From Granulosicoccus sp. (GTDB lineage: Bacteria > Pseudomonadota > Gammaproteobacteria > Granulosicoccales > Granulosicoccaceae): a stretch of DNA of 41,770 nucleotides. How positions within the stretch are numbered: position 1 is the stretch's first letter; every line of letters begins with the position of its first letter. A model generated the notes under the pieces. It ran no database searches. It was not told the origin of the DNA and saw only the letters and a program-made list of their open reading frames with translations. The DNA lies in NCBI GenBank assembly GCA_023301795.1, contig JALZVU010000029.1:1-41770 (forward strand), written 5' to 3'. The translations under genes and the position numbers were made by a program. This document shows, in pieces, positions 5,948-22,515 of the stretch.

Positions 5948-6028
5948 CGTCCATCGCATGCGTGGCAGGGGTTTATAGCTTCTGCCACGCTTTGCATGTT
6001 TTTGATAAAAAGTGATTTAAAGATAGCA

Positions 6029-6358: not shown

Positions 6359-6477
6359 AGTCGGTTCAAGACCAAAAATAAAGTGGGCGCAGCGTTGTCG
6401 TTGTGCGGCAGGCATGAATCGCTTAGTGTGGATTCAGCCTATTCTTATTTGTTAAACCCCTCGAGATAATTGTGCTC

Positions 6478-7443: not shown

Positions 7444-7492
7444 GTTAGCGCTCAACCCCGTGTTATTTTTGTGACCAGAAACCGCGCTATGA

Positions 7493-7520
7493 TGGCAGGC
7501 TACAACAGGGTGGCCTGCCA
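7493..7520 (+). promoter_or_regulatory. Intercistronic stem-loop between tctC and tctB
   Basis: TGGCAGGC (7493-7500) and GCCTGCCA (7513-7520) form a perfect 8-base-pair stem with a 12-base loop. No T-run follows, so it is more likely a processing or mRNA-stabilising hairpin than a full terminator. Such elements are known to let a binding-protein gene be expressed above its membrane partners. Confidence 0.5.
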
Positions 7521-7604
7521 GCTTAACGACTCTCACCCAGTTGGGATCATTCAAAACGCCACCAGGCTAGTGCCAAGTTGCGTGCCTATCCGCGGCTTGC
7601 CAAT

Positions 7605-8066: not shown

Positions 8067-9588
8067 TGAAAGCTTCAGAATTGGACAGTTCACTTTGCTA
8101 GGTTCACTCCCAGAAGCTCTATCAATACTGTTCAGCCTGCAAGGCATCTCGGTGTTGTTACTCGGCACAACCTTAGGGATTGTGATGGGCGCATTGCCAG
8201 GCATAGGGTCCACCGTTGCTGTGGCTATGATTCTGCCGTTTACGCTGACGATGGAACAGGCACCTGCCATCATGCTGCTTATCGCCATCTATGCAGGGTC
8301 GGTGTACGGAGGGTCGGTATCGGCCATCCTTATCAACACGCCGGGTACGCCACAAAGTGCTGCGACCTGTCTGGACGGCTACCCCATGGCGCAACGAGGG
8401 GAGGCTGGCAAGGCCTTGGGCTGGTCGACTGTTGCGTCGGTGTGTGGTGGTCTTGCATCAGCGCTATTGCTTATTTTCGCTGCACCTCAGCTTGCGGCAT
8501 TTGCTCTGAATTTTGGGCCTATCGAGACGTTTTCACTCGTGCTGCTTGGGCTAACGTGCATTGTTTCTGTCTCTGAAGGCTCCTTGGTAAAAGGACTGCT
8601 GGCTGGCATGCTTGGTCTGTTTCTGTCTACTGTGGGTGGTGATCCCATCACAGGCGAGGCGCGTTTTACGTTTGGCTACTTTCCTCTGATATCGGGCTTT
8701 AATCTTTTGGCTGTTGTGATTGGTGTGTTTGCGTTGTCCGAGGTGCTCACACGGGTGTCGCAGAAGATTGATTCCACACGAGCCCTGGTGACTTTCAGCG
8801 GAATCGTGCTTCCGAGGTTATCTGAGTGGAAAGGGCGAGTGGGTAATCTGATCAAGTCGGTTGCCATCGGGTGCGGTATTGGTGTTTTACCCGGAACGGG
8901 TGCTGCAACAGCTGCCTTTATTTCATACGCCGAGGCGAAGCGATCATCGCCACGTGCAAGCGAGTTTGGAAAAGGCGAGCCTGACGGATTGGTGGCCTCC
9001 GAAGCTGCGAACAATGCGGTGACCGGCGGTGCATTGATTCCGACGATGGCGTTGGGCATACCGGGAGATGCTGTTACGGCGGTGATGTTGGCTACGCTGA
9101 CTTTGCATGGTGTATCACCAGGGGTACGATTGATGACAGACAACCCTGTGCTGATAGCCGCAATATTCACAGGATTTCTCATCATCAATCTTCTGTTGTT
9201 ACCACTAGGCATGCTGGTGTCTAAAATTGCTGCGCCGCTTTTGCGCATGCGCGAGAGCTTCATGCTGGCCGCCATTGCTATCCTATGTGTGATAGGCGTC
9301 TATTTTGTTCGAGGTAACCCGTTCGATTTACTGATTATGGTTTGCGCCGGCATTGTTGGCTTTTTGCTGCGAAGACAAGGGTTTCCCATGCCGCCATTGG
9401 TTATCGGCATGGTGTTGGGTCCCACACTTGAGATTAGCCTCAGACAAGGGCTTATCATCACGGATGGTAGCTTTGCAGCATTTTTTACGGGTCATCCCAT
9501 CGCCCTTTTTCTGATCGTGGCTGCGGCAGGAATGTTAAGTCTTCCGCTGATCAGATTTTTGCGGGCGCGACGCTTGAAGTCTGCCTGA
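8050..9588 (+). CDS. tctA: Tripartite tricarboxylate transporter large membrane subunit (TctA family)
   Basis: The channel subunit, up to 512 residues with about 11-12 helices. Diagnostic segments are GIVMGALPGIGSTVAVA near the N-terminus and the matching repeat GVLPGTGAATAAFISYAEA near residue 285, plus ILINTPGTPQSAAT and GIPGDAVTAVMLATL. The start is uncertain. The longest frame begins with TTG at 8050, a second TTG lies at 8095, and no ATG exists in this frame near the beginning. The ATG that overlaps the tctB stop (8066) is in another frame and runs into TAG at 8099. A natural start may have been lost by a one-base change, or TTG 8095 is used. Confidence 0.88.
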   Translation: MCGGCDESFRIGQFTLLGSLPEALSILFSLQGISVLLLGTTLGIVMGALPGIGSTVAVAMILPFTLTMEQAPAIMLLIAIYAGSVYGGSVSAILINTPGTPQSAATCLDGYPMAQRGEAGKALGWSTVASVCGGLASALLLIFAAPQLAAFALNFGPIETFSLVLLGLTCIVSVSEGSLVKGLLAGMLGLFLSTVGGDPITGEARFTFGYFPLISGFNLLAVVIGVFALSEVLTRVSQKIDSTRALVTFSGIVLPRLSEWKGRVGNLIKSVAIGCGIGVLPGTGAATAAFISYAEAKRSSPRASEFGKGEPDGLVASEAANNAVTGGALIPTMALGIPGDAVTAVMLATLTLHGVSPGVRLMTDNPVLIAAIFTGFLIINLLLLPLGMLVSKIAAPLLRMRESFMLAAIAILCVIGVYFVRGNPFDLLIMVCAGIVGFLLRRQGFPMPPLVIGMVLGPTLEISLRQGLIITDGSFAAFFTGHPIALFLIVAAAGMLSLPLIRFLRARRLKSA

Positions 9589-9681
9589 GAACCCGCTCAT
9601 AACCTGAGCAGTCCTGATATCTTGAACTATTTATGTTCTGATCTGTCCTAGCGAATTGACAGCAGCTAACTACGAAAATCC

Positions 9682-10149
9682 ATGGCCAAGAAAAAATCAA
9701 GCAGCACCCCATCGTCCTTTCGTGATCGCTTCGCAAAAATGACGCCTCAAAAACAAAGACGATTTCTCATGAAGAGCGGAGGCGCGGCTGCTCTGGTAGT
9801 GGCTAGTGCAGGTGCTTTGGCTACCTACGACAAGCGCCAGCGTACCTTGCATGATTTGTCAGGACTAGGTGAGGGCCGCGCCACGGTTGTGCAGATTCAT
9901 GACCCGAGCTGCCCGGTGTGCCGAAATCTAAAATCACGTACTTCCAAGGTGTTGGAAGGATTCGAGAGTGTAGATTTTCGACTTGCTGATATCACCACCA
10001 GCGAAGGCCGCAAGTTACAGGAGCAGTACAGAGCTACGAAAACTACCCTGTTGTTATTTGACGGCAAAGGTAAGCATGTGCGAACAGTGGTAGGTCTTCA
10101 AAGTATTGAAGAACTGGCCGAGTTATTTCGAGGTGTATTCAAGACATAA
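9682..10149 (+). CDS. Membrane-anchored thioredoxin-fold protein
   Basis: A 155-residue protein with a basic N-terminus (MAKKKSSSTPSSFRDRF, then QKQRRFLMKS), one hydrophobic helix (about 33-48, GGAAALVVASAGALATY) and a thioredoxin-like domain holding DPSCPVC with Cys77 and Cys80. The order beta strand, CxxC, helix, strand, then TTLLLFDGKGKHVRTVVG fits a compact thioredoxin domain. The N-in topology would place the CxxC in the periplasm, so a role in thiol redox or metal handling is plausible. The cis-Pro expected before the third strand is not evident (ATKTTLLLF), which makes activity as a classical reductase uncertain. Confidence 0.65.
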   Translation: MAKKKSSSTPSSFRDRFAKMTPQKQRRFLMKSGGAAALVVASAGALATYDKRQRTLHDLSGLGEGRATVVQIHDPSCPVCRNLKSRTSKVLEGFESVDFRLADITTSEGRKLQEQYRATKTTLLLFDGKGKHVRTVVGLQSIEELAELFRGVFKT

Positions 10150-10155
10150 GCAATA

Positions 10156-10225
10156 TGGCAGGTAGCGCTGGGATCTCCTTGCTGCCTGCCAGAACCCATC
10201 GAGCTCCTGATCTATGAGCCCGATG
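10156..10225. terminator. Two tandem hairpins between convergent genes
   Basis: First stem: TGGCAGGTAGC (10156-10166) against GCTGCCTGCCA (10181-10191), 11 positions with one G-U-type mismatch. Second stem: CATCGAGCTC (10197-10206) against GAGCCCGATG (10216-10225), 10 positions with one mismatch. They sit between the thioredoxin-like gene and the convergent iorB end and probably terminate transcription from both sides. No T-run follows. Confidence 0.6.
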
Positions 10226-10281
10226 GTCAGACGATCTATTAACGATTGAACGCGTCGCGATTAAACAGGCGCGAACACTGT

Positions 10282-12456
10282 CTACGCAAAGCTAACGCCA
10301 TGAACTGTCATTGGGAGTTCGGTGTTGCGATTCCCGGTAAGATCAAAAATGGCGTTGGATAATGCTGCCCCTGCAGGCGGTAATCCTGGCTCACCCGCTC
10401 CAGACGGTGCCTCGTTTGAAGTCACAATATGCACAGCAACGTCAGGCATATCACTGATACGCAGTGGTTCGTAGTCAGGAAAATTACTTTGCTCAACCAC
10501 GCCATCTTTGAAGCTGATCTGGTTGCGCATAATGGCACCTAAACCATAGCCAATTGCCCCTTCCATCTGTGCGCGGATAACATCCGGATTGATGGCAATG
10601 CCACAGTCCACTGCGCAGGTGAATTTATCAATGGATATTTTCCCATCGACCAGGGATACCTTGGCAACTTCTGCTACATAGGTATTAAAAGAGAAGTGTG
10701 CAGCAAAGCCATAGCCTTCGCCTTTTTGTCGCTCATGCCAGCCCGACTCTTTCGCTGCCAGACGAATGACCTCAGCGAAGCGACTCCCTTTCTCGTCACC
10801 CTCGTCAAGATAAGACAGTCTGTAATCAACCGGGTCCTCATCGGCTGCATGCGCCAGCATGTCCATCATGATTTCCATGGTGAATGCGTTTTGCGAGTGG
10901 CCTACTGCACGCCACCATAAAGCTGGGCGTGGTGTGCTGTAGTCACTGACCCCCACGGCCATTTGAGGAATCTGATAAAGCGTGTCAACGATTCCTTCTA
11001 CCGTGCTGTGATCAACACCATCGTGCACCACCATAGATTCAAATGGCGTGCCTTTCATGATGGACTGGCTTGCCAGTCGATGCTCCCAACCTTGAACGCG
11101 ACCGTTTTCATCAAGACCTACAGACACTTTTTGAACAGACATGGGGCGATAGAATCCGCCAGCCAGATCGTCCTCTCTTGACCAGATGAGTTTTATGGCG
11201 TGCTTGCCTTCTTTCAATGCGTAAGCCATGGCAGCTTCCACATGATAGTCAGAGACAGTGTTGGCACGCCGCCCAAATGAGCCTCCGGCAAACACGGTGC
11301 GTATTTCTACATTTTCAGGAGCCAGTTGCAGGACAGCAGCTACTGCCCCCTGGGTAATCGTCGGCATCTGGCAACCATCATGCACGCGAACTCCGGTAGC
11401 GGTAGGCTCGATGACACAGTTCATAGGCTCCATTGGAGCGTGTGCCAGGTTAGGGAGTGTGAATTGCGCATCTACCATCTTGGCAGCGTCACTGTTGAGC
11501 GCTGATACAGTAGCAATGTCAACCGGTGTTGCCGGAAATTGTGGGTCAGCACCTACAAGTGCCACATGCTCAGCCATCATCGCTTCGCTGCCACGTGTGT
11601 CGGCTTCACTGTCGTCCCATGTTGCCGTTATCAGCTTGCGTGCGCGGATCGATGCGTACGTTGAGTCTGCATAGATGGCTACGCCTGCCTTGTTAGGTAA
11701 TGCCATGGCATCGATAAACCCAGGTGCATCCTTAGCGCCACTGGCATCAAATGTTGCCAGCTTACCGCCTGCACAAGGCGCGCGTAACAAGGTGACGTAC
11801 AGCATGTTTGGCACTTTGACATCCATAGCAAATTCTGCGGTGCCGTTCGTCTTTGCCACACTGTCTTTTCTTTGCAGATAATCGCGCCCGATGAGTGTGA
11901 AATCGGCAGGCTGTTTCAACACTGGTGATGCAACAGGCTCAAGGGTGGTTGCGGTGGACGCAACATCACCAAATCCTGCACTTTTAGAGCCGTGTGTAAT
12001 GAGGCCCTCGCTTATCGTTATCTCTGATGCATCGACGCCCCAATCCTTCGCGGCTGCGCGTACCAAAAGATCTCGGGCGCTGGCACCGGCTTCCCGATAT
12101 TGCATAAACGAATTGGCCATCGCTGTTGATCCACCGGTTCCTTGTATTTTGAAGAACAGGTTGGAGTACAGCGCATTGTTAGCCGGTGCAAAATCAACTT
12201 TTACGTCGTCCCAGTTTGCATCCAGTTCTTCGGCAACCAATGTAGCAAGCCCGGTCGATGTGCCTTGACCCATTTCGAAGTGTTTAGCGATGACGGTGAC
12301 TGTGCCGTCGCCGTCAATTTTCAGAAACGGGTTTATCGAGGCATCGGTATTTGTTGAGGCGACGGCTAATGTGCCGTTGGTGTCGAGACCTATAACGAGG
12401 GATACGCCAACGGCTGTACCGGCCTGAAGAAAACGTCTTCTGCTGAGTTGAGTCAT
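10282..12456 (-). CDS. Molybdenum hydroxylase large subunit (IorB family), Tat-exported
   Basis: The molybdopterin-binding subunit of an isoquinoline-1-oxidoreductase-type enzyme, 724 residues. ATG 12456 is chosen because GGAGG sits at normal spacing before it and it follows the alpha-subunit stop by two bases. Residues 6-25 carry a Tat signal, SRRRFLQAGTAVGVSLVIGL. Family motifs include HFEMGQGTSTGLATLVAEEL, GGSFGRRANTVSDYHVEAA, the PALWWRAVGHSQNAF region and the C-terminal GEPGLPPAGAALSNAIFDLTG, whose Glu is the conserved catalytic base. Known relatives hydroxylate N-heterocycles or oxidise aldehydes. No cytochrome subunit or cofactor-insertion (XdhC-like) gene is adjacent, so maturation genes lie elsewhere. 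Substrate unknown. Confidence 0.9.
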   Translation of the reverse strand: MTQLSRRRFLQAGTAVGVSLVIGLDTNGTLAVASTNTDASINPFLKIDGDGTVTVIAKHFEMGQGTSTGLATLVAEELDANWDDVKVDFAPANNALYSNLFFKIQGTGGSTAMANSFMQYREAGASARDLLVRAAAKDWGVDASEITISEGLITHGSKSAGFGDVASTATTLEPVASPVLKQPADFTLIGRDYLQRKDSVAKTNGTAEFAMDVKVPNMLYVTLLRAPCAGGKLATFDASGAKDAPGFIDAMALPNKAGVAIYADSTYASIRARKLITATWDDSEADTRGSEAMMAEHVALVGADPQFPATPVDIATVSALNSDAAKMVDAQFTLPNLAHAPMEPMNCVIEPTATGVRVHDGCQMPTITQGAVAAVLQLAPENVEIRTVFAGGSFGRRANTVSDYHVEAAMAYALKEGKHAIKLIWSREDDLAGGFYRPMSVQKVSVGLDENGRVQGWEHRLASQSIMKGTPFESMVVHDGVDHSTVEGIVDTLYQIPQMAVGVSDYSTPRPALWWRAVGHSQNAFTMEIMMDMLAHAADEDPVDYRLSYLDEGDEKGSRFAEVIRLAAKESGWHERQKGEGYGFAAHFSFNTYVAEVAKVSLVDGKISIDKFTCAVDCGIAINPDVIRAQMEGAIGYGLGAIMRNQISFKDGVVEQSNFPDYEPLRISDMPDVAVHIVTSNEAPSGAGEPGLPPAGAALSNAIFDLTGNRNTELPMTVHGVSFA

Positions 12457-12458
12457 GT

Positions 12459-12920
12459 CTATGCCTCCATTATTTCTGATGCACGATGAATAGCTGCGCG
12501 TATTCGATGGTAGGTAGCGCACTTGCAAGCATTACCATTCATAAACGTATTGATTTGAGTGTCATCAGGTTTCGCGTGATCTTCAAGCAGTGTGGTGGCT
12601 TGCATGATCTGACCAGATTGACAGTATCCGCATTGCACCACATCCAGTTCTTGCCAGGCTTGTTGCACTGCCTGGGCAGCCTTTGATTCAATGGATTCTA
12701 TAGTCGTGACTTCCTGCTCGCCAACAGCCGATACAGGCAATACACAGGAGCGTTGTGCTCGACCGTTGACATGCACAGTACAGGCACCGCAAGAAGCAAC
12801 GCCGCAACCGAACTTGGTGCCGGTTAAATCCAGTTCATCGCGCAGTACCCATAGCAGGGGTGTATCAGGCGGTGAGTTTATTTCTCTGTTTTCACCATTG
12901 ACTTTCAATGTGAGTGACAT
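12459..12920 (-). CDS. Molybdenum hydroxylase small [2Fe-2S] subunit (IorA family)
   Basis: A 153-residue subunit with two iron-sulfur sites. The plant-type cluster is held by CGVASCGACTVHVNG and the later Cys in AQRSCVLPV. The second, helical cluster uses CGYCQSGQ and CKCATY. In most relatives the last motif reads CRCGTY; here Gly is Ala (ACKCATYHRI), a mild oddity. It transfers electrons from the molybdenum centre of the downstream subunit. The start has a clear GGAGA ribosome site. With iorB it forms a two-gene operon; the small subunit has no Tat signal and would be carried across with its partner. Confidence 0.92.
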   Translation of the reverse strand: MSLTLKVNGENREINSPPDTPLLWVLRDELDLTGTKFGCGVASCGACTVHVNGRAQRSCVLPVSAVGEQEVTTIESIESKAAQAVQQAWQELDVVQCGYCQSGQIMQATTLLEDHAKPDDTQINTFMNGNACKCATYHRIRAAIHRASEIMEA

Positions 12921-13345
12921 GGATATTCTCCGGTATGTGGTGGCGGATTGTGCAAGCGAACGGCAAATTCAGATTAGCCTTGCAGACGGTAAGCGCAGCT
13001 CGGTAAGTGATGGTTCAGGCTTGGCAAAATTCAGATGCTGTGGTCTTGAGATAACGCATCCTGACATGCAGTATACGTTGCCATGGAGTCTTTGGAGGGC
13101 CAGAATATTGACAGGTTCTGCTGGTGGATACATACCCGGTATTCGCCAGATCAAGGTGGAAACTGACAGAGAGTTTTCTACCCTAGCGGTTTGCAGTCCT
13201 GTCCACGATACGTTACCGGTTCGGGTAGAGTAGTGAGTAGCTAGCCCGATATGGTGTGACTACCGGCAATCATTTTTTTTGAGTCGGTTGGTTAACCAAC
13301 GTTGCTGCAGGAACCTTTGACGCTACGTTTTTCATAGAGGATGTT
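12921..13345. other. 425-base divergent intergenic region
   Basis: I see no credible gene on either strand. It separates the minus-strand iorAB operon from the plus-strand protease gene. The notable elements are the perfect palindrome at 13287-13300 and an A/T-rich run (CATTTTTTTT) just before it. The remainder shows no recognisable repeat or RNA structure. Confidence 0.5.
13287..13300. promoter_or_regulatory. Perfect 14-base palindrome upstream of the protease gene
   Basis: GTTGGTTAACCAAC reads identically on both strands and lies 45 bases before the protease ATG. Position and symmetry suit a dimeric repressor operator. It is too short for a strong terminator and lacks a loop. Confidence 0.4.
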
Positions 13346-14557
13346 ATGGAACTTGACTACACACTGATAACAACACCCCGACCGATGACTCCACCCACAC
13401 GGGGTTCGGCAACCGGTCTTGGTGCTGATACAGATGAGCTTATCAAGGGCTTGACTGCAGAAGCCCAGGAGTCGTGGCGTGTGGAAAACATCAAGGCACA
13501 GCCTGCCGAGATTGCAGATCTACATAACGACTCACGGACAGTGTCGGTGACGCCTGCGATGCCTATGACATTGATTGCCCCGGTATCGAGTGAAGAGCCA
13601 ATCGGTACCCGTGAGGAATCTGGCCGCGTGGCTTGGGGTATCGAAGCGGTGGAGGCCGATCGTTCCAGGTTTACAGGAGAGGGGGTCAGTGTTGCAGTTT
13701 TGGATACGGGAATTCAAAGCACTCATGCGGCGTTCAAGGGTGTATCACTGTTAGTGCAGAATTTCACCACGGACGCTACAGCTAACGACGCCAATGGTCA
13801 CGGGACGCATTGCGCGGGGACAATCGCTGGCAAGGATGTTGATGGTACGAGGATCGGCGTGGCAAAAGGCTTGGATCGTCTGATCATCGGTAAGGTGCTG
13901 AGCGACTCGGGTCAGGGCTCAACCACGGCCATTGTTCAGGGAATTCAATGGGCCTCGCTGCAGGGAGCTCAGATCATCTCCATGTCATTGGGGATCGATT
14001 TCACCGCGTTTGTAGAAAGATTGCATAAGGAGCAAGGTGTTGAGTTAAAAGCGGCAGTGTCGATGGGGTTGCAGGCGTACAGTGCCAACGTTGAGATGTT
14101 TGAAAAGCTGGGCGATTCGTTTAACGCGTTAAGTTTTATCGGACGAGGTGCACTGTTGGTGGCGGCGGCGGGCAATGAAAGCCGCAGACCTGCCTACACC
14201 ATAGGTACATCGCCGCCGGCGGTCGCTGACTCTATCTTGTCAGTGGCGGCGGTTGATCGTGATTTTGCGGTTGCGCCATTTTCTAACACCGAGGCCGATA
14301 TCAGTGGTCCTGGTGTCAACATAAGCTCTGCTGGTCTGGATGGGGGGTTGTCGATACTCTCTGGCACGAGTATGGCTGCACCGCATGTTGCAGGTGTGGC
14401 TGCTTTGTGGAGTCAGAAGCTTCTGGAAACAGAGCCTCAGCTGAACATTGACCGGCTGAAAAGTACGTTGTTTTCCAATGTGAATCTGGCCTCTGACCAA
14501 GTGATTCCTGATCTCGTGAATACGGGGAGAGGTATGATAAAATCGCCAATTATTTGA
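13346..14557 (+). CDS. Subtilisin-like serine protease (peptidase family S8)
   Basis: A 403-residue S8 peptidase with an intact active site: Asp120 in VAVLDTG, His152 in GHGTHCAGTIAG, oxyanion Asn277 in AAAGNES and Ser342 in SGTSMAAPHVAG. About 100 residues precede the catalytic domain and may be a propeptide (it includes VSVTPAMPMTLIAP, which resembles an I9-like strand region only loosely). There is no signal peptide, so the protease is either cytoplasmic or exported by an unusual route. An insertion at about 215-260 (FVERLHKEQGVELKAAVSMG) lies before the oxyanion Asn. AGAGGA at 13336 is the ribosome site. Two downstream genes of unknown function follow on the same strand, suggesting one functional module. 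Confidence 0.92.
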   Translation: MELDYTLITTPRPMTPPTRGSATGLGADTDELIKGLTAEAQESWRVENIKAQPAEIADLHNDSRTVSVTPAMPMTLIAPVSSEEPIGTREESGRVAWGIEAVEADRSRFTGEGVSVAVLDTGIQSTHAAFKGVSLLVQNFTTDATANDANGHGTHCAGTIAGKDVDGTRIGVAKGLDRLIIGKVLSDSGQGSTTAIVQGIQWASLQGAQIISMSLGIDFTAFVERLHKEQGVELKAAVSMGLQAYSANVEMFEKLGDSFNALSFIGRGALLVAAAGNESRRPAYTIGTSPPAVADSILSVAAVDRDFAVAPFSNTEADISGPGVNISSAGLDGGLSILSGTSMAAPHVAGVAALWSQKLLETEPQLNIDRLKSTLFSNVNLASDQVIPDLVNTGRGMIKSPII

Positions 14558-14769
14558 CTCGCTCTCGCCGTACGGTAGTTACGATGCTGAATTCGCGGCG
14601 GAAAGGGGCGATAACTGTGCAGGGTAGGTGCATGATACCGGCCGGTTTATGAGGACGATCGTGGGGCGGTTGAAATTAGCTGAGTTAGAGCGCATCTTCC
14701 ATAACGCATTGTTATGAAAGCAAAGGTGTTGTATCTTCTGAGTATGGGCGTGAAAAGCGTGGTGTTAAA

Positions 14770-15051
14770 ATGACAGTACCAGAGCAGGACGAAAAACAAG
14801 CGTGTGTCTGGGCAACCAGCAAAGATCGTTGGGACAGCTTTCTTAATGATCCTGAGCTCGCACGTGCAATTGACTCTGTAAGGCAGACGTCTCCAGCTAC
14901 TGGCAGTAGCGTTGAGAGTGCGGTTGCCGAGTCGCCAGTGGCTGCTGCGCGCAAGGGCGATACCGATGAGAGCATGCACAGTATAGGAGCTCGTCTGCGA
15001 GCTTACGAGACGCCCATCACGGATGAAATTCTTCGCCAATCCATTCGGTAA
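14770..15051 (+). CDS. Small unknown protein between two peptidase-like genes
   Basis: A 93-residue acidic protein that I do not recognise. The N-terminal third is helical-looking (RWDSFLNDPELARAIDSVRQ), the middle is low-complexity Ala/Ser/Glu (about 45-65), and the end is a conserved-looking tail (IGARLRAYETPITDEILRQSIR). It has no signal peptide or membrane segment. It lies 212 bases after the S8 protease and 129 bases before the C39-like gene, same strand. By position it could be a protease substrate, inhibitor or adaptor; nothing in the sequence decides this. The ribosome site is weak. A longer antisense frame exists, but its Cys/Arg-rich translation looks random. Confidence 0.55.
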   Translation: MTVPEQDEKQACVWATSKDRWDSFLNDPELARAIDSVRQTSPATGSSVESAVAESPVAAARKGDTDESMHSIGARLRAYETPITDEILRQSIR

Positions 15052-15180
15052 ACCAATACAAACCTTAGTTCGCCCTGTGCAACGGCACACCTCACAGTAG
15101 CATCTGCATTTACCAGTTGTTGAAACTGATTTCTTCACAGATCGCCCCTTAAGCTGCAGTAACCGCCATCGCTGATATTC

Positions 15181-16773
15181 ATGCATCAAGCCGCTAGTCT
15201 GGAGTTTCATGCATTCGATCAGGATTGTTTCGACGATCTTTATCCGTCTCGACAGCTGCGCTACCTGTACTGCTATCTGCGGGATCTGGGTGCGAAAACC
15301 ATTCTGGTAGAGCCTCATTATTTTGACAAAGACTACTTGTCAGAATTTGCCGCATTTTATAGCGTCAGCTCGCGCGGCTACCCCAATACCTGCAGAAGGC
15401 TTCATTTTTTCGCTGATAACGTTTCGCGTGATCAGTTTATAGAAGCGGTCTCGGGCAAGGCTTGTGCGTTGAAAGCGTTACAGCAAGCCTATCTTGGATT
15501 TAGTGTGATCCGGCCTATTTCAGCAGCGCCTCTAGGCTGTACGGTACTTGCCTGGTATCCCGATGTGGGTCGACCCACACGTCGCGTCACCACGCCCTCA
15601 CGTGAATACCGCTGTCATGTGGCTGGGGTACAGCTCAGTGTGACGGGTCTGGCCTGGCAGCAGCAAGATTCAGCGGTAGGAGCCTGCGCCACAGTAGGTT
15701 TGTGGAGTATGTTGCATGCATCCAGTTTTGATAACGACCATAGTGCGCCAACCACGGCACAGATAACCGAGGCAGCGCATCAGACGGCTGTGACTGGCGC
15801 ACGTGTCTTTCCGTCTAATGGTCTGACGATTATCCAGTTGCTTGAGGCGATCAAGCGTTACCACATGGCCCCGTTTGCCATGAGTGGTGATATTCAACCC
15901 AGAAGTGCATCAATTCGGGCCGACACGATCTCGCGCAGTGCGGGGTTCAGTCGTGAACGTTTTGCCAGCACATGTGCCTCCTTCATCCGGTCCGGCTATC
16001 CGGTGCTGGCTATCGGCCAATCCATAGGCAATGGCCGACACGCGATCTGCATCACAGGTTTTCGTGAGGAGCCCCCGGGTGATGTGCCCGCGCGGGCAGT
16101 GAAGGCCGCTGATGAATCCATCGTACATGTCTATATACACGATGACAATCTGGGACCAAACGTGCGCTTTGCCGTCACGACACGCAGCCAGTTTGGCCAG
16201 GTGACGCTGCTTCCCGATCCGCCAGAGAATAAACGCGATGGTGAAAATGCCTCACCGACGCTTGGGCATCCAGCCTTTATCCCGCAGCAACTGGTGGTTT
16301 GCACGCATGAGGATCTGAGAACCTCACCCGATAAGCTCAACGGCACAGGCCTGAAAATTTGCGCAGATATTTCTAGCACGATGAACCAGCTGCTTGAGCG
16401 TTCAGGGCTACCTGAGCGCGGTTTGTTATACAGCTGTCGATTCCTGTTGTTGCGTGATTATCTCAGTGAAGAGCTCCAGATGCTGTTCAGTGCCCCTGAA
16501 GAGGCTTCACTACTGGGTCGTGTCCGTATGGAGGTGGTGGAGCGTGTGGTGCCGATGAGTAAACATGTCGGGGTTGTCAGAATATCCCTACAAGATTCCA
16601 CACCCTTGCTGGACGTGCTCTACGACACATCGGACAGTGATCTGAACCACCCTGTGTTTGCACACTTATCTTTCGGTATGAACGTTTGCCGCATTCTGGA
16701 AGGAGTGGAAGGTTATGATCGCGATCGATTTGGTGTGCAAATAAGAGCGTTTAATGTGGATGAATTGCAATAG
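15181..16773 (+). CDS. Papain/C39-like putative cysteine peptidase
   Basis: A 530-residue protein of unknown function with signs of a papain-like fold. The segment WQQQDSAVGACATVGLWSML has an oxyanion-type Gln (160-162) and a candidate nucleophile Cys169 at the head of a helix. NGRHAICITGF supplies His287, and VYIHDDNLGP supplies Asp321/322 as the third residue. This Gln-Cys-His-Asp order and the HAI.I.GF context match C39-like and related cysteine peptidases. Residues 1-150 form a separate N-terminal domain with YLGFSVIRPISAAPLG, and 370-530 a C-terminal alpha/beta region without recognisable motifs. No signal peptide. It ends a plus-strand group that begins with the S8 protease. Catalytic activity is inferred, not certain. 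Confidence 0.55.
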   Translation: MHQAASLEFHAFDQDCFDDLYPSRQLRYLYCYLRDLGAKTILVEPHYFDKDYLSEFAAFYSVSSRGYPNTCRRLHFFADNVSRDQFIEAVSGKACALKALQQAYLGFSVIRPISAAPLGCTVLAWYPDVGRPTRRVTTPSREYRCHVAGVQLSVTGLAWQQQDSAVGACATVGLWSMLHASSFDNDHSAPTTAQITEAAHQTAVTGARVFPSNGLTIIQLLEAIKRYHMAPFAMSGDIQPRSASIRADTISRSAGFSRERFASTCASFIRSGYPVLAIGQSIGNGRHAICITGFREEPPGDVPARAVKAADESIVHVYIHDDNLGPNVRFAVTTRSQFGQVTLLPDPPENKRDGENASPTLGHPAFIPQQLVVCTHEDLRTSPDKLNGTGLKICADISSTMNQLLERSGLPERGLLYSCRFLLLRDYLSEELQMLFSAPEEASLLGRVRMEVVERVVPMSKHVGVVRISLQDSTPLLDVLYDTSDSDLNHPVFAHLSFGMNVCRILEGVEGYDRDRFGVQIRAFNVDELQ

Positions 16774-17030
16774 ACGCATTCCAATTCAAACGCCCGCATG
16801 GCACACTGCCAGTTGCTGCTGTGTTGTATTGCCGTAGTAAGTATCTAGGGGTCAGCTAGTGCAATATGTTTCAACTAGCTGATGGTACTGCGGGGGCTGT
16901 TGTATCGCTAGCCTGCGACTTCAACAATCATCAATACGCCACCATGTATCGTCACTCTGATCTCATGAAGAGATCCCGGAATATCCGGCACTATCAAGAA
17001 CAGTTTTGGACAGCCAGGCCGTCTGAGGCG
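16774..17030 (+). other. Region before the OmpA-like gene
   Basis: 257 bases that I leave unassigned. The OmpA-like frame is open back to 16866, so ATGs at 16866, 16944 and 16965 could in principle extend that protein. The extension has no signal-peptide character, and the real start is more likely at 17031. No repeat or terminator is evident. Confidence 0.4.
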
Positions 17031-18239
17031 ATGCGCATATCGCCCCGTTCAATGGGTTGGCTGGCTCGCAGCCTTAGCCTGTGGGTTCTGGGTATTGCTC
17101 TATTGATCACGCATCCGGTCCTGCATGCCCAGCAAACCGCCACAGATTCGCTGCTTGTCAGGATTGTTGACGAGCAAGGAAATATCGGATCCAAATCAGC
17201 GCCGCCTGCCCTGTTAAAGCGTGGACCTTATCTGGGTGTGGGTGTTGGTCTCAGTTTGCTGGAGCCAGAGCCCCGAGGTGATATCGATATCGAAATCGAG
17301 GACGATACAGACGTGGGTGCGCAACTGACATTGGGTCTGGACATCAACAGACACTGGTCGGCTGAATTGCATGCGGCTGATCTTGGCAGTGTTGAACTGT
17401 CCGATGGTTCCTCTGTTGATTATCGAGAGTGGGGTTTAAGTGCGCTCTACTACTTTGGTGATAACAAGGGTCGTTATAATCGCCAAGGGTGGACAGGCTT
17501 CGGCAGAGCAGGTGTGGGTAAACTGAGCAACCAATCTGACGGGCAGGTGCAAGTCCAGATGAAAGAAGGGGAGCACTTTATTCTTGGGGCAGGTGCTGAA
17601 CGCTCCACCCGTAGTGGCTTTGCAGTGCGGCTGGAGGCAATCCTGTTTGATCGGGATGCCAGTTATTTTCAGCTTGGATTACTCTATCGGCTTGGTGGTG
17701 TCCCTGCGTGGGTTCCAGGTTTCCCCGGCTTGGATGCCCGCCGCGCGGCTATTGCCGAGAAAAAGGTTCGTATGTCCGGCAAGGTCACACGGGTTCCATC
17801 GCCGCGTGATGCAGACGGCGATGGTGTTCTACAAGCTGCTGACAAGTGTGAAGATACACCTCCCGGGATTGCCGTTGGTGACAATGGATGTGCCGTATTC
17901 AACGGCGTGATTGATGGGCTGACGTTTGTCTCGGGTTCTGCGCAACTCACGGATGAAGCGAGTGTGGTTCTTGACAGCGTTGCCAGCTCTCTGCAGCAAA
18001 TTCCAGAGGCGCGTGCACGGGTTACGGCCCACACCGACAACCTTGGATCAGCCGATGCCAATATGCAACTTTCGCGACAACGAGCCTTGGCTGTGGCCAA
18101 GTATCTGGTTGATAAAGGTATTCGCAAAGCTCGGCTAGAAGCCCGGGCATTCGGCGAAATCAGGCCCATCGATACCAACAGCATTGAATCAGGGCGACGC
18201 AACAATCGACGCGTGGAGATAGACCTGATTGCGGAATGA
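17031..18239 (+). CDS. OmpA-family outer-membrane protein with N-terminal beta-barrel
   Basis: About 402 residues from ATG 17031, which precedes a signal peptide (WLARSLSLWVLGIALLITHP, cleavage near LHA-QQ). GPYLGVGVGLSLLEPEPRGD starts a small barrel of the OmpA/OmpW type, ending near LGLLYRLGG. A short calcium-binding-like TSP3 linker follows (DADGDGVLQAADKCEDTPPG). The C-terminal OmpA peptidoglycan-binding domain is clear: TFVSGSAQLTDEASVVLDSVA, TAHTDNLGSADANMQLSRQRA and RNNRRVEIDL. It would link the outer membrane to peptidoglycan. The start is uncertain, since the frame extends upstream to 16866. It is followed by a single-pass membrane protein gene. Confidence 0.85.
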   Translation: MRISPRSMGWLARSLSLWVLGIALLITHPVLHAQQTATDSLLVRIVDEQGNIGSKSAPPALLKRGPYLGVGVGLSLLEPEPRGDIDIEIEDDTDVGAQLTLGLDINRHWSAELHAADLGSVELSDGSSVDYREWGLSALYYFGDNKGRYNRQGWTGFGRAGVGKLSNQSDGQVQVQMKEGEHFILGAGAERSTRSGFAVRLEAILFDRDASYFQLGLLYRLGGVPAWVPGFPGLDARRAAIAEKKVRMSGKVTRVPSPRDADGDGVLQAADKCEDTPPGIAVGDNGCAVFNGVIDGLTFVSGSAQLTDEASVVLDSVASSLQQIPEARARVTAHTDNLGSADANMQLSRQRALAVAKYLVDKGIRKARLEARAFGEIRPIDTNSIESGRRNNRRVEIDLIAE

Positions 18240-18326
18240 GTGCAAATAGCTGGCAGACAACGACAAGCCCTACCGGTTGTGATTCAATGCACCAATGCGG
18301 GTGTAGGCTGCAGCCGGCATTTGCTC

Positions 18327-18350
18327 CGTGATTTAACAACGTGATTTAAC
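18327..18350. repeat. Short tandem direct repeat
   Basis: CGTGATTTAAC occurs twice, at 18327-18337 and 18340-18350, a 13-base period. It lies 27 bases before the start of the single-pass membrane protein gene and could be a regulator site or a chance duplication. Confidence 0.4.
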
Positions 18351-18376
18351 GAACGTGGATACTTATTAGGCACACT

Positions 18377-18964
18377 ATGGATAACGGCGCTCTGGTTTTT
18401 CTCATCATCATCGAAGCAATTATCATCGTCTGGCTGACGAGTAAATTGAAGCAGTATCAGAAATTTGAGCAGATGCTTGGCGCTGGCAGTAACGGGGGAG
18501 CCCCTCATTCGCCCACCCGTTCCACGGAGAGTGTGTCTGCAGAGGCCGCCGCAAGCAACACAGCTGCACCTGACAGAGCCAATGCAGCGGCATCCGCCGT
18601 AGCAAGTTCTGTCAGTGCCTCGCAGGATACCGAAGAAGGCTTGTTGGATATGCCCGGAGTAGATCCGGAGAGCAACATCGAGGAGGCTAAGCGTGTACAG
18701 CTGGTGATGGCAAGATGCCGCTATGCCGAGTTCTATCTGGAGCAGCTTGATGATGACTACGAGTTGGGGCAGTTTCAGCGAATTCTAAACAGTTGCAAAG
18801 GCACCGCACGCAATATCGAAGATCCCTTTTTTCGAGCAAGTGCCCTGGAACCTATTGTCCTGTTGTTGCACCGGGCAGAGTTTACTGACGAGCGTGATCA
18901 GTTGCTGGCTGAGGTCGATGATGAATTGGTCAAGCAGCGAATCATGGACGAGATGTCAACGTAA
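18377..18964 (+). CDS. Unknown single-pass membrane protein
   Basis: A 195-residue protein I do not recognise. Residues 5-22 (ALVFLIIIEAIIIVWLTS) form one transmembrane helix right at the N-terminus, followed by a basic and glutamine-containing stretch. An Ala/Ser-rich, probably disordered linker spans about 40-85. The C-terminal 100 residues are acidic and helical (VMARCRYAEFYLEQLDDDYE, then ILNSCKGTARNIEDPFFRA), looking like a small helical-repeat domain. With the helix N-out/C-in, the domain would be cytoplasmic. AGG seven bases before the ATG acts as a ribosome site. The direct repeat at 18327-18350 lies in its upstream region. Confidence 0.65.
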   Translation: MDNGALVFLIIIEAIIIVWLTSKLKQYQKFEQMLGAGSNGGAPHSPTRSTESVSAEAAASNTAAPDRANAAASAVASSVSASQDTEEGLLDMPGVDPESNIEEAKRVQLVMARCRYAEFYLEQLDDDYELGQFQRILNSCKGTARNIEDPFFRASALEPIVLLLHRAEFTDERDQLLAEVDDELVKQRIMDEMST

Positions 18965-19077
18965 TTCACGTTGACGCCTCCGACGTAGATCATTGCGACG
19001 CTGCGGGTGAGCACGTACGTACTGCGCTACACTGTCCCGCTTCCGAACGTTCAATTTAATGAGTGAGGCGAGTTTCA

Positions 19078-19326
19078 ATGAGTGACGGTAAAGCAACCCA
19101 AAATAGCCCGTACCGTGTAGAAGTCGAGGCGGGTAAGAGCTATTTCTGGTGCTCTTGCGGCCAGAGTGCAAGTCAGCCTTTCTGCGATGGTAGTCATAAG
19201 GGCAGTGAGTTTTCACCGGTTAAGCATGTTGCTGAAAAAGATGGCACGCTAGCCTTTTGCGGATGCCGCCAATCAGGCAACAAGCCACTGTGTGATGGCA
19301 CGCACCGTAGTCTTTCAGAATCCTGA
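19078..19326 (+). CDS. Double-CDGSH iron-sulfur protein
   Basis: An 82-residue protein carrying two complete CDGSH-type motifs, each a CxCx2(S/T)x3Px(C)DGxH-like cluster site: CSCGQSASQPFCDGSH and CGCRQSGNKPLCDGTH. Each would bind a [2Fe-2S] cluster with three Cys and one His. Two-motif versions are common in bacteria and are soluble; there is no membrane anchor here, unlike mitoNEET. The start is ATG 19078, preceded by GAGTGAGGCGAG; an upstream in-frame start at 19063 would add five residues. Proposed roles for the family are redox sensing and iron-sulfur handling, with no specific partner suggested by the neighbours. Confidence 0.9.
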   Translation: MSDGKATQNSPYRVEVEAGKSYFWCSCGQSASQPFCDGSHKGSEFSPVKHVAEKDGTLAFCGCRQSGNKPLCDGTHRSLSES

Positions 19327-19398
19327 TCACAGGATCGATCGTCAGGCATGCTGAGTAAGTCCGAGGTTTCTCATCTCAGCGTGTCTTTTAGCTAAGGC

Positions 19399-20283
19399 AT
19401 GGGGCCGGTAAAGCACACACCGTTGGCGGGCATGCTGGTTATGGTAGTTGCCACGTTCATATTTGCGGTACAAGACGCGATCACCAAGTCGTTGACCACT
19501 GAACTTCCAGTGGCCCAGATCGTTTTTGTCAGATTTGTCGCCTTTGCGCTGATGGCGCTTTTCATCGCTCATCGCGAAGTGGGTTTGCGCTCAGCCTTTG
19601 TCTCGGCCACGCCTTCGTTGCAACTGTTACGTTGCATTATCATGTGTGCGGAGATAGCGTTGTTTGCTTATGCGCTTCGTTTTCTCGGAATTGCTCAGAT
19701 GCATGCATTGTTTGCCTGCTTTCCGTTATTCGTTGCAGCGCTGTCTGTGCCATTGCTCAAAGAGGCTGTGGGTTGGCGGCGCTGGCTGGCCGTCATTATC
19801 GGTTTTATCGGTACGCTGATTATTCTTCGACCTGGCACCGCAGTGTTTGATCCTTATGCACTGTATCCTTTGTTAGGTGCAATTTTGTATGCGGTGTACA
19901 ACCTGTTAACACGTCGTGTGTCTCGCCAGGATTCCTTTGCCACATCGTTAGTGTACTTTGGCGGTGTGGGAGCCGTTGCATCGGGTCTGGTTGCCATGTG
20001 GCAGTGGCAGCTCATGAGTGGCGAACAGATGAAACTGCTTGCCTACCTTTGCGTCACCTCTGTTATCGCCCACATGATGTTAATGAAAGCCTTACAGCTG
20101 ACGGAGGCTGTTGTACTTCAACCTTTCCAGTATTTGATACTTCCCTGGGCGATCCTGCTGGGGTATTTTTTATTTGATGAAAAGCTGGACACTTACACGA
20201 TCGTCGGTGCGTTGGTTGTGGTTAGTAGCGGTGGGTATGTTGCCTATCGTGAATATCGCCTGCAACGTCGTGTCATCCAATGA
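19399..20283 (+). CDS. EamA/DMT-family transporter
   Basis: A 294-residue inner-membrane protein with ten predicted helices in two EamA repeats (about 10-140 and 150-285). Typical family segments are FIFAVQDAITKSL in helix 1, LRCIIMCAEIALFAYALRFL, MHALFACFPLFVAALSVPLL closing with WLAVIIGFIGTLIILRPG, and the second-repeat QPFQYLILPWAILLGYFLFDE. It most likely exports small metabolites such as amino acids or drugs; the substrate is not readable. It stands between a CDGSH gene and an outer-membrane protein gene without obvious coupling. Confidence 0.88.
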   Translation: MGPVKHTPLAGMLVMVVATFIFAVQDAITKSLTTELPVAQIVFVRFVAFALMALFIAHREVGLRSAFVSATPSLQLLRCIIMCAEIALFAYALRFLGIAQMHALFACFPLFVAALSVPLLKEAVGWRRWLAVIIGFIGTLIILRPGTAVFDPYALYPLLGAILYAVYNLLTRRVSRQDSFATSLVYFGGVGAVASGLVAMWQWQLMSGEQMKLLAYLCVTSVIAHMMLMKALQLTEAVVLQPFQYLILPWAILLGYFLFDEKLDTYTIVGALVVVSSGGYVAYREYRLQRRVIQ

Positions 20284-20309
20284 ACAACTAACCGAGCAAG
20301 AGAACATTC

Positions 20310-21041
20310 ATGGACGTACTTTCAATGAATAATCAACATACAGCCTCTCGATACCGCATGACATGTGGAATCGTATTCGGGCTTTTGATGAATACGCTTC
20401 TGGCAACCACTGCCAATGCGCAATGGACAGGTGGCCTTGAAGGTGGAACTGTCATCGGCGATTCACGTCAGGCATCAACACGGCTACGAGGTGTTTTGCG
20501 CAACGATACACGACCACTGAGCCACTACATTTTTGCGGAATGGATAGACGGCAACGACGCTGGCGACAGCTATTCCTTAGGCTATAACCCGCGATTCTGG
20601 TTTAGCCAAACGAACTACGCGTTTGGTGAATCACGATTTCGTATAGAACAATCCTTGGGGATTGACAGGGAATTCAAGCTGATTGGTGGCGTTGGTAGTC
20701 AACTGATCAACGAACAAACCCGTAGTCTGTTTGTCGAGGCGGGCGTCGGTGGAAGATCCATCACCTTCGATGATCTAGATGACGACACCACAACTGAGGG
20801 GCTTGCCGTGGCTCGTCTGGGCGGCCATCAAACTATTGCTGATGCTGTGAAACTGGATTTAAGTCTCAGTGGTACGCAAAGCAGCGACGATGTTCTGGAG
20901 CTGGATGCAGAAGTGGGGTTGTCTGTGCGTATTGGAGGTGGGGCGGTACGCGTTGGCTATAGAGGCCGCTCTATCAAGGTAGGTGATTTTGACTCTGTAA
21001 GCGACGACGATACGTTTGTAAGCTTCAACTATGGTTTCTGA
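20310..21041 (+). CDS. Predicted outer-membrane beta-barrel protein (DUF481-like)
   Basis: A 243-residue exported protein. The signal peptide is MTCGIVFGLLMNTLLATTANA, cut before QWTGGLEGG, with the likely start at ATG 20310, 20325 or 20358. The mature part alternates polar and hydrophobic residues in amphipathic strands and ends in Phe after VSFNYGF, as outer-membrane barrels do. The phrases GYNPRFWFSQTNYAFGESR and LIGGVGSQLINEQTRSLFVE resemble the DUF481/YdiY 'salt-induced outer membrane protein' group. Function unknown. Confidence 0.6.
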   Translation: MDVLSMNNQHTASRYRMTCGIVFGLLMNTLLATTANAQWTGGLEGGTVIGDSRQASTRLRGVLRNDTRPLSHYIFAEWIDGNDAGDSYSLGYNPRFWFSQTNYAFGESRFRIEQSLGIDREFKLIGGVGSQLINEQTRSLFVEAGVGGRSITFDDLDDDTTTEGLAVARLGGHQTIADAVKLDLSLSGTQSSDDVLELDAEVGLSVRIGGGAVRVGYRGRSIKVGDFDSVSDDDTFVSFNYGF

Positions 21042-21130
21042 TGTCATATACGTCAGATTGCGGCACCGCGTTTTTTTTGTGAGTATCGAGTGCGAATGCA
21101 CTCTGCCGGCATGTCTCTGATGAGCTTATT

Positions 21131-22489
21131 GTGATGTTTTATGGAGTTCGTTGGAGCCCTCTGCGGGCCGATCTGCTACGTACCTTGAGAATGGGTGTGC
21201 CGCTGGTGGGCGCCCAGCTATTGCAGATGGGTAACGGACTTGTTGATGCGGTTGTTGCCGGACGTCTTGGAAATATTGAACTGGCAGCGGGCGGCATTGG
21301 TGCAAGCCTATGGTTCATTACCTCATTATTGAGCATGGGGCTGATGGCAGGTTTATCACCTACCTTGTCGCGGCTTATTGGTCAGAGTCGACGCGCCTTT
21401 GTCGGACGTGTTTTCCGGCAAGGCGTCTGGCTTGGGCTGATGACAGGTTTCTTTGCGCTGGGTGTGTTGCTGATCGTCAGCCATTTTGTTCCGCGGTTCG
21501 GGTTTGCGCCTGAGCTACCGCCTCTGATCAGAGAATATCTGTGGGGTGCTGTATGGAGCCTGCCATTTTTTGCTCTTGTCATGGCCGCACGCAATGTCTG
21601 TGAAGCAACCGGATTAACACGTCCAGTGTTATTTGTTACAGCCATGGGTTTGCTGGTTAACATTGCCGGCAGTTCCATACTAGGGCTGGGTTTGTTGGGC
21701 GTGCCCGCGCTTGGGTTGTTCGGCATCGGCATAGCAACAACGATCGTTAATGTCTGCATGGCAGTGGTTCTTTTTGCCCTATTGTCCGGCAAACGATTCA
21801 CCCGCTTTCAGCTTTTCTCCGACATTGAACGACCTGAGTGGAGTTTTCTTGGGCCCATGCTGAATCTGTCTGTCCCTATTTTTCTGGGCATGCTTTTCGA
21901 AGCGGGTCTGTTTGTGGCCACTGCGCTGCAAATGGGCATGATTGGCGTAATGGAGGCAGGCGCACACCAAATTGCAATCAGTGCATCAGCTTTTTGTTAT
22001 ATGTTGCCGCTGGGGATGTCGTTTGCCGTAACGGCAAGAATAGGCAGGGCGGTGGGTCAGCAATCGATGAGCTCGGTTCGACTACGTATTGTCAGTGCTT
22101 GCCTGCTGGTTCTGGTGATGGCAGTTTCAACTGCCCTGTTACTCATATTGTTTCGTCATGACATCGCCTCGATTTATACCAGTGACCCCGAGCTGATCGA
22201 GTTCGCAGCAAGTTTGTTGATTCTGGGTGCTGTATTCCAGCTCTCTGATGGTGCGCAAATCATGCTGATTGGCATATTGCGAGGGCTACACGACACACGC
22301 GTACCCATGCTGATCAATGCATTCTCATACTGGGTGGTTGCATTTGGTTTTGGCGTGTTTGCGGCGCATGTCCTTGACTATGGTGCACATGGTTTGTGGC
22401 TGGGCTTGATCACTGGACTCACTATCGCATCTGTTCTATTGGGATTTCGTCTTAGATGGAAGCTGGGTGCCATGCGACACGAGTTTTGA
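21131..22489 (+). CDS. MATE-family multidrug/cation exporter
   Basis: A 452-residue inner-membrane protein with twelve predicted helices in two six-helix halves. The N-terminal LVGAQLLQMGNGLVDAVVAGRLG and the LGAVFQLSDGAQIMLIGILRGLHDTRVP segment in the second half are diagnostic of the NorM-type MATE branch. These proteins export cationic compounds using a sodium or proton gradient. GTG at 21131 and ATG at 21134 are both possible starts; no strong ribosome site is visible. It converges with the caspase-like gene with only 26 bases between them. Confidence 0.92.
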   Translation: MMFYGVRWSPLRADLLRTLRMGVPLVGAQLLQMGNGLVDAVVAGRLGNIELAAGGIGASLWFITSLLSMGLMAGLSPTLSRLIGQSRRAFVGRVFRQGVWLGLMTGFFALGVLLIVSHFVPRFGFAPELPPLIREYLWGAVWSLPFFALVMAARNVCEATGLTRPVLFVTAMGLLVNIAGSSILGLGLLGVPALGLFGIGIATTIVNVCMAVVLFALLSGKRFTRFQLFSDIERPEWSFLGPMLNLSVPIFLGMLFEAGLFVATALQMGMIGVMEAGAHQIAISASAFCYMLPLGMSFAVTARIGRAVGQQSMSSVRLRIVSACLLVLVMAVSTALLLILFRHDIASIYTSDPELIEFAASLLILGAVFQLSDGAQIMLIGILRGLHDTRVPMLINAFSYWVVAFGFGVFAAHVLDYGAHGLWLGLITGLTIASVLLGFRLRWKLGAMRHEF

Positions 22490-22515
22490 GTCTTATTGGC
22501 TGCGTAGGTGGAGCT

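What the first reader, a model, noticed from the sequence alone, without database searches (positions are those of the whole stretch)
13346..16773. Two-peptidase module: S8 subtilisin, small unknown protein and a C39-like cysteine peptidase
Seen: an intact S8 active site (Asp120, His152, Asn277, Ser342) with no signal peptide, a 93-residue acidic protein, then a 530-residue protein with a Gln/Cys169/His287/Asp321-322 arrangement, all on one strand. Known: S8 and C39-like folds are peptidases, C39 often cutting leader peptides at Gly-Gly sites. Inferred: the three genes could be a proteolytic cascade or a peptide-maturation or conflict system, with the small protein as substrate or inhibitor. 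I do not recognise this three-gene arrangement.
Basis: partly seen in the sequence, partly recalled or inferred. Interest (0 to 1): 0.65.

Follow-up and report, generated by a model that had tools for sequence, protein, structure and literature searches.

The report
Cysteine peptidase with small tailed partner
Two of the three genes form a widespread, apparently undescribed pair: a papain-like protein-cutting enzyme and a small partner with a conserved tail end, which one model places at the enzyme's substrate groove; the third gene is an unrelated neighbour.

Summary
The three genes and the quoted active-site residues are real. The three-gene module is not: a subtilase lies in the fetched flanks of only 2 of 89 loci of the peptidase family, and orthologues occur in two same-genus genomes without a peptidase match. 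The other two genes are a robust pair. The 530-aa protein has a confidently predicted papain-like fold (pLDDT 92; staphopain Z 15, C39 Z 13-14, UfSP/ZUFSP Z 12-13). Gln162, Cys169, His287 and Asp322 are kept in 86-87 of 87 relatives. A short upstream gene is accepted by eye in 83 of 87 loci and by a cross-validated tail profile in 54 of 87. Its last ~13 residues are the conserved part. A read-through model places that tail at the conserved loop that I equate with papain's substrate-binding strand, but the bridging residues themselves are of low confidence. E1-type genes of ubiquitin-like conjugation adjoin 15 of 87 loci. Best reading: a latent cysteine peptidase held by a small partner's C-terminal tail, used in cellular conflict. 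Biochemistry is untested, and none of the models scanned describes the pair.

The parts
14770..15051 (+). small partner gene, 93 aa (P0002)
   Evidence: homologous short gene upstream of the peptidase in relatives; leave-out HMM ranks it first of 528 window ORFs; alignment A4
14803..14841 (+). N-terminal tryptophan motif of the small protein (residues 12-24, CVWATSKDRWDSF), shared within the window's own subfamily
   Evidence: alignment A4: W14 nearly invariant (90% or more) in 12 sequences
14995..15048 (+). C-terminal tail of the small protein (residues 76-93, LRAYETPITDEILRQSIR); residues 91-92 are strand in the read-through model
   Evidence: the family-wide tail is shown
15181..16773 (+). 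papain-like cysteine peptidase gene, 530 aa (P0003)
   Evidence: AlphaFold2 pLDDT 91.9; VIA-align Z 15.3 to staphopain
15571..16317 (+). papain-like domain (about residues 131-379)
   Evidence: range aligned to solved papain-like structures
15664..15687 (+). Gln162 (oxyanion-type position) to catalytic Cys169
   Evidence: Q 87/87, C 86/87
15802..15837 (+). conserved loop R208-Q219 (RVFPSNGLTIIQ); residues 215-216 are strand in the read-through model, coil in the solo model
   Evidence: L215 86/87; DSSP
16039..16041 (+). catalytic His287
   Evidence: 86/87
16141..16146 (+). Asp321-Asp322 (third catalytic residue; Asp322 invariant)
   Evidence: D322 87/87, D321 86/87

Best explanation
Window 14770-16773 is a two-gene unit. 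Gene 1 makes a small protein, modelled as helices with a C-terminal tail; gene 2 makes a papain-like cysteine peptidase with extra N- and C-terminal regions. Shown by computation: the fold, the conserved catalytic residues, the recurrent gene pairing, the conserved extreme C-terminus of the small protein in the family. Predicted by one model, at modest confidence: the tail bridges the loop that I equate with papain's S2/S3 substrate-binding strand, so its last residue would lie near the catalytic Cys. Inferred: the small protein binds like a product or trans-acting propeptide and holds the peptidase in check inside the cell. Loss, displacement or cleavage of the small protein then frees the peptidase, which cuts cellular or invader proteins in a defence or stress response. 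In some lineages the unit is tied to a ubiquitin-like conjugation system. The window's copy is a stand-alone, patchily distributed version.
For: Fold: pLDDT 91.9; Z 15.3 staphopain, 14.3 PCAT1, 13.1 UfSP2. Catalytic residues: Q162 87/87, C169 86/87, H287 86/87, D322 87/87. Pairing: in a two-fold cross-validation the small gene's tail exceeds the 99th percentile of 7030 control ORFs in 54 of 87 loci and is first in its own locus in 53 of 87 (one search printed 57 and 55, of which 3 and 2 are an XRE gene's tail). By eye 83 of 87, and again in the viral-contig loci (4 after merging two alike, one tail a variant). 60 of 82 measured pairs overlap (17) or lie within 30 nt (43). Docking: in the read-through model residues 71-90 of the small protein have block pLDDT 85-87 and the linker 97-135 is under 50; tail residues 91-92 and P0003 215-216 are both strand, while 215-216 is coil in the solo model. 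Context: plasmids; E1-type genes beside 15 of 87 loci; some neighbours matching defence models. The one relative that lost both Cys and His (L092) also has an unusual tail end.
Against: No inhibition, toxicity or proteolysis has been measured. The docking rests on the best of five single-chain models, with no coordinates, PAE or decoy tail, and the block 91-100 that holds the bridging residues averages only pLDDT 59. Tail-peptidase covariation was inconclusive (61 rows, effective 52). The seed pattern of the tail profile was written after I had looked at all loci, so the cross-validation is not fully blind. The window's own tail scored -9.5 in that profile, below 188 of 278 control ORFs; its membership rests on subfamily alignment and HMM. 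The defence-neighbour scan had no background. A conserved free C-terminus fits a modifier or substrate as well as an inhibitor.
Confidence: 0.4

Rival explanations
1. The small protein is a substrate or a peptide modifier. Its C-terminus is the position of a scissile or isopeptide bond, and the peptidase processes, removes or transfers it, as deubiquitinases do with ubiquitin-like tails.
For: Conservation is anchored near the free C-terminus: Leu at position -7 in 48 of 64 profile windows. UfSP and ZUFSP deconjugases are among the fold matches. E1-type genes adjoin 15 of 87 loci. The modelled tail pairs with the substrate-side loop.
Against: The last residue varies: Leu 28, Ile 13, Arg 8 and ten others among 82, and no Gly-Gly in the last 8 residues. 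72 of 87 loci show no E1 in the fetched flanks (some flanks are cut by contig ends). The window's own genome has no Multi_ubiq match.
Confidence: 0.25
2. The small protein is an obligatory activator, chaperone or adaptor subunit that completes the peptidase or brings targets to it.
For: Tight pairing; the later part of a long helix of the small protein (residues 56-78) is modelled at block pLDDT 71-87.
Against: The solo peptidase model is already confident without it; the new bridge that I see in DSSP is at the substrate-side loop.
Confidence: 0.17
3. Peptide-maturation system: a C39-like peptidase matures the small protein into a secreted peptide.
For: C39 domains are among the closest folds; a long relative just passes PF13529's cut-off, and 5 of 45 members match it at E<=0.01. 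ABC-ATPase-type genes lie in 5 of 89 loci, the window's included.
Against: Those ABC-ATPase genes lie 2 to 11 genes away, on varying sides, not as a constant partner. The family-wide conserved part of the small protein is the C-terminus, the reverse of a leader peptide, although the window's subfamily also has an N-terminal Trp motif. No Gly-Gly in P0002.
Confidence: 0.1
4. The subtilase, small protein and cysteine peptidase form one three-gene proteolytic cascade.
For: They are adjacent and on one strand in the window.
Against: A subtilase match in 2 of 89 loci only, the other one on the opposite strand. Subtilase orthologues at 49-51% identity occur in G012 and G019, which have no peptidase match. 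The gap to the small gene is 212 nt.
Confidence: 0.03

Closest known systems
Peptidase_C39_2 / C39 peptidase domains (ComA, PCAT1; PF13529)
   Same: papain-like fold, Z 13-14; Gln-Cys-His-Asp arrangement
   Different: P0003 does not match the Pfam model; no ABC-transporter domain matched in it; large extra N- and C-terminal regions; partner conserved at its C-terminus rather than at a GG leader
Staphopain / staphostatin and other papain-like peptidases with a dedicated inhibitor
   Same: best fold match (Z 15.3); peptidase paired with a small partner
   Different: partner not shown to inhibit; no sequence match to solved structures at E<=1
UfSP / ZUFSP (C78) ubiquitin-like deconjugases
   Same: fold match Z 12-13 over about 170-205 residues; some relatives adjoin ubiquitin-like genes
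   Different: identity 9-12%; the partner has no Pfam match and no Gly-Gly tail
Bacterial ubiquitin-like conjugation operons (Multi_ubiq PF14452, Prok-E2_E, Prok-JAB-ThiF, DUF6527)
   Same: E1-type genes beside 15 of 87 loci, Multi_ubiq-type genes in 7 of these; co-directional with the pair in L012 and L044
   Different: the pair is not mentioned in the passages that I read of PMC1779556 and PMC7159879; the window has no such gene nearby
Type II toxin-antitoxin operons
   Same: small gene first, tight coupling, some on plasmids, XRE regulators in some loci
   Different: toxicity and neutralisation untested

Membership tests
Papain-like cysteine peptidase fold (clan CA type) | papain-like fold by structure comparison | tested here: met
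   Z 15.3 staphopain, rmsd 3.3 over 167 residues
Papain-like cysteine peptidase fold (clan CA type) | conserved Gln, Cys, His, Asp/Asn | tested here: met
   87/87, 86/87, 86/87, 87/87; their geometry in the model was not measured (no coordinates)
Papain-like cysteine peptidase fold (clan CA type) | proteolytic activity | not testable with these tools
   needs assay
Peptidase family C39 (Pfam PF13529) | match to the family model | tested here: not met
   P0003 no match at E<=10; 5 of 45 relatives at E<=0.01; L012 just above cut-off
Peptidase family C39 (Pfam PF13529) | Gly-Gly leader in the substrate (recalled) | tested here: not met
   no Gly-Gly in P0002, if it is the substrate
Bacterial ubiquitin-like conjugation system | Ubl and E1 genes with the pair, in the window | tested here: not met
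   no E1-type neighbour in the window; no Multi_ubiq match in the genome, which is 97% complete
Bacterial ubiquitin-like conjugation system | same, in relatives | tested here: met
   E1-type gene in 15 of 87 loci, Multi_ubiq-type in 7 of these; domains in the loci scanned; 10 changes on the tree
Type II toxin-antitoxin | two-gene operon, small gene first | tested here: met
   co-transcription not tested
Type II toxin-antitoxin | toxicity neutralised by the partner | not testable with these tools
   needs expression test
Pup / UBact modifiers | small protein ending in Gly-Gly-Gln/Glu (recalled) | tested here: not met
   0 of 82 small proteins have Gly-Gly in the last 8 residues
S8 subtilase cascade | subtilase gene co-occurs with the pair | tested here: not met
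   2 of 89 loci

The most novel reading that the evidence does not exclude
The small proteins are a new class of tail-bearing protein modifiers or signalling tags, unrelated to the ubiquitin fold, whose free C-terminus is read, removed or transferred by a dedicated papain-like peptidase; the module is repeatedly combined with bacterial ubiquitin-like conjugation systems as a second layer of control.
Probability: 0.2. Interest if true: 0.85.

Novelty: new variant of a known kind. Interest (0 to 1): 0.6.

Why it matters
A papain-like peptidase with a conserved trans-encoded tail, spread over many bacterial phyla and two archaeal contigs and repeatedly placed beside ubiquitin-like conjugation genes, links two areas: protease-based bacterial immunity and the bacterial roots of ubiquitin deconjugation. 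The prediction that a short C-terminal tail sits in the active-site cleft is directly testable with a two-gene construct in a laboratory strain.

Tried and rejected
Rejected: the subtilase as part of the module. Tried without result: sequence search of solved structures; Pfam, NCBIfam and PADLOC for P0002 and P0003 (the one hit for P0002, Csx24 at E=0.019, taken as chance) and for the 45 members of A2 (PF13529 in 5 of 45; CotO, AbiEi, type I specificity and EntC in 1 of 45 each, taken as chance); phage records (no match); tail-peptidase covariation (inconclusive); genome-level co-occurrence with Multi_ubiq (6 of 48 genomes, against 13 of 369 in the class), weak alone and not matched for taxonomy; one search was given 50 of the 80 genome-contig loci. 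Promoter and terminator scan: no excess over shuffles. PHROGs was not scanned.

The defence-neighbour scans used 96 proteins of 174 within two genes of the peptidase (60 cut by the size limit, 18 dropped by hand; L011-L073 only), with no background. Of these, 3 match helicase models (HmaA, DrmD, BrxH, DpdE); since the models are alike these are probably the same three proteins and do not show whole DISARM or BREX systems; AriA 4, mad3 5, SoFic 2, type I methyltransferase 2, PDC-S06 2. The N- and C-terminal regions of P0003 were not searched alone for folds. Only 80 of 174 confirmed genome contigs relatives were returned, and many flanks end at contig ends, so absences of neighbours are lower bounds of presence.

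Literature: the listings showed me no description of the pair; I read only passages of PMC1779556 and PMC7159879. Most subscription papers and all bioRxiv preprints are missing from the library, so absence in print is not shown.

Rows dropped: L022 and L030 (same contigs as L016 and L017) from counts of 87; L100, L076, L031 and L018 (short or divergent) plus the two duplicates from the 83-row tree; small-protein-only rows from the read-through alignment after they misaligned; L058's weak E1 match (E=1e-4, 7 genes away) from the 15.
Full report
Observation. The three ORFs, strand and coordinates are as stated. The subtilase has Asp120, His152, Asn277 and Ser342 and matches PF00082. The 530-aa protein has Gln162, Cys169, His287, Asp321 and Asp322. 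It has no match in Pfam, NCBIfam or PADLOC.

Which genes belong together. A genome-contig scan with a nine-member alignment gave 174 relatives of the 530-aa protein, of which the best 80 were returned. Four more are on plasmids. Four are in genomes of the same class (stretches taken; 7 of 369 class genomes match, the window's own included and two only weakly). With the window these make 89 loci, 87 after removing two duplicates. None of the 26 other genomes of the genus searched has a match, so the family is patchy. A subtilase match lies in the fetched flanks of 2 of 89 loci (window, and L091 on the other strand). Two same-genus genomes without a peptidase match, G012 and G019, encode a subtilase 49-51% identical; their stretches show no tblastn match at E<=1e-5 to the peptidase or to the small protein, the latter a weak test for so short a query. 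The subtilase is therefore best seen as an independent gene. Window 4.7-16.8 kb lies between genes that are about 4-5 kb apart in G008 and G020, so the pair sits in a variable region.

The small partner. Listing ORFs upstream of each peptidase showed a short same-strand gene in most loci. The 82 that I placed are 40-117 aa long, median 63.5, with 78 ATG starts by my choice of start. Across the family the sequences differ towards the N-terminus and agree at the end: in the main group [V/I/L]-[D/S/T]-x-[E/D]-x-L-x-x-x-aliphatic/aromatic-x-[L/I]-COOH. By eye I accept 83 of 87 loci, some with variant tails; L015, L018, L032 and L074 are unclear. A tail profile trained on half the loci and scored on the other half puts the small gene above the 99th percentile of 7030 control ORFs in 54 of 87, and first in its own locus in 53 of 87. 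On average 1.6 candidate ORFs stood against 81 controls per locus, so about 2% would be first by chance. The seed pattern was written after seeing all loci, so this is not fully blind. The window's subfamily has its own version of the tail, and the window's tail scored -9.5 in that profile, no better than chance. Its membership rests on alignment A4 and on a leave-out HMM that ranks it first of 528 window ORFs (E=0.001). Viral contigs gave five loci, two with the same match figures which I took as one; the four examined again have the short gene, one with a variant tail. Of 82 pairs measured, 17 overlap and 43 lie 0-30 nt apart, counted from the first start codon of the peptidase frame; the window's gap is 129 nt.

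The peptidase. AlphaFold2 on 45 sequences gave pLDDT 91.9, pTM 0.92. The closest solved structures are papain-like: staphopain (Z 15.3, rmsd 3.3 over 167), C39 domains of PCAT1 and ComA (Z 13-14), phytochelatin synthase, IdeS, UfSP2 (Z 13.1) and ZUFSP (Z 12.1). In 87 relatives Gln162 is 87/87, Cys169 86/87, His287 86/87, Asp322 87/87 and Leu215 86/87. L092 (Proteus hauseri) has lost both Cys and His. P0003 is not a member of Pfam's C39_2 family by the model; 5 of 45 members match it at E<=0.01, and one long relative is just above the cut-off.

How the two may fit. The two window genes are in one frame, so I folded them as one chain with the intervening stops read as glycine, using 25 such read-through rows and 27 peptidase-only rows. 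The linker is disordered (pLDDT under 50 at 97-135). Residues 71-90 of the small protein have block means of 85-87; the block 91-100, which holds the last three residues and the start of the linker, averages 59. DSSP marks tail residues 91-92 as strand and likewise P0003 215-216, which are coil in the solo model. From the order of elements (Cys helix, second helix, then a loop leading into a third helix) I infer that the FPSNGL loop corresponds to papain's Gly65-Gly66 strand, which pairs with substrate residue P2 (papain facts recalled). The tail would then lie on the substrate's acyl side with its C-terminus near Cys169. This is one prediction, weakest at the very bridge, without coordinates, PAE or decoys; a covariation test gave no clear support.

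Setting. E1-type (ThiF) genes lie in the fetched flanks of 15 of 87 loci, with Multi_ubiq-type genes in 7 of these: L012, L016, L017, L044, L070, L098 by sequence and L013 by annotation. Domains found in the loci scanned are Multi_ubiq, Prok-E2_E, Prok-JAB-ThiF, DUF6791-ThiF and DUF6527. In L012 and L044 these genes run in the same direction directly before the pair. On an 83-row tree the link needs 10 changes, so it is not one inherited accident. Most loci (72 of 87) show no E1 in what was fetched, and the window's genome has no Multi_ubiq match. At genome level Multi_ubiq is found in 6 of 48 genomes with the family, against 13 of 369 class genomes. Among 96 neighbour proteins a few match defence models: helicases, AriA, SoFic, methyltransferase, PDC-S06; some relatives have XRE regulators upstream. 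There was no background set for these.

Reading. The most economical account is a latent cysteine peptidase held by a small partner whose C-terminal tail fills the substrate cleft, used in cellular conflict and sometimes wired to ubiquitin-like conjugation. The main rival is that the tail is itself the substrate or the reactive end of a modifier. Both predict the same docking, and only biochemistry separates them.

Novelty. No family model in the three libraries scanned describes it beyond the partial C39_2 match, and the searches of open papers listed under Tried and rejected showed nothing on it. The kind (protease with small partner) is known; this family, its conserved tail and its recurrent ubiquitin-like link appear not to be described, within those limits.

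Noticed in passing
window 13346-14557: Independent subtilase (403 aa) with orthologues at 49-51% identity in two same-genus genomes, there next to a 229-aa gene that I take, from recall and unsearched, for a zinc-peptidase type. It also matches a PADLOC model named subtilase at E=1.5e-21, not followed.
   Followed up: partly
window 4706-16773: Variable segment between blocks conserved in G008 and G020 (window 1124-4339 and 16866-25991).
   Followed up: partly
L005/L017/L030 and L004/L016/L022, after the papain-like domain: Long acidic simple repeats, (EEA)n and (EET)n, inserted in frame in two close relatives between the papain-like domain and the C-terminal region; absent from the window's protein.
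   Followed up: no
L092 7947-9986: Relative from Proteus hauseri with both catalytic Cys and His replaced by Tyr, and an unusual small-protein tail end; a possible pseudoenzyme.
   Followed up: no
L012, L014, L047, L050, L056 and other long relatives: A group of relatives of about 660-780 aa; in those aligned it shows as an additional C-terminal region, not analysed.
   Followed up: no
L042, L043, L064, L100, gene +1: A conserved 389-397 aa protein lies just downstream on the opposite strand in these four loci; the one scanned has no Pfam match over cut-off.
   Followed up: no
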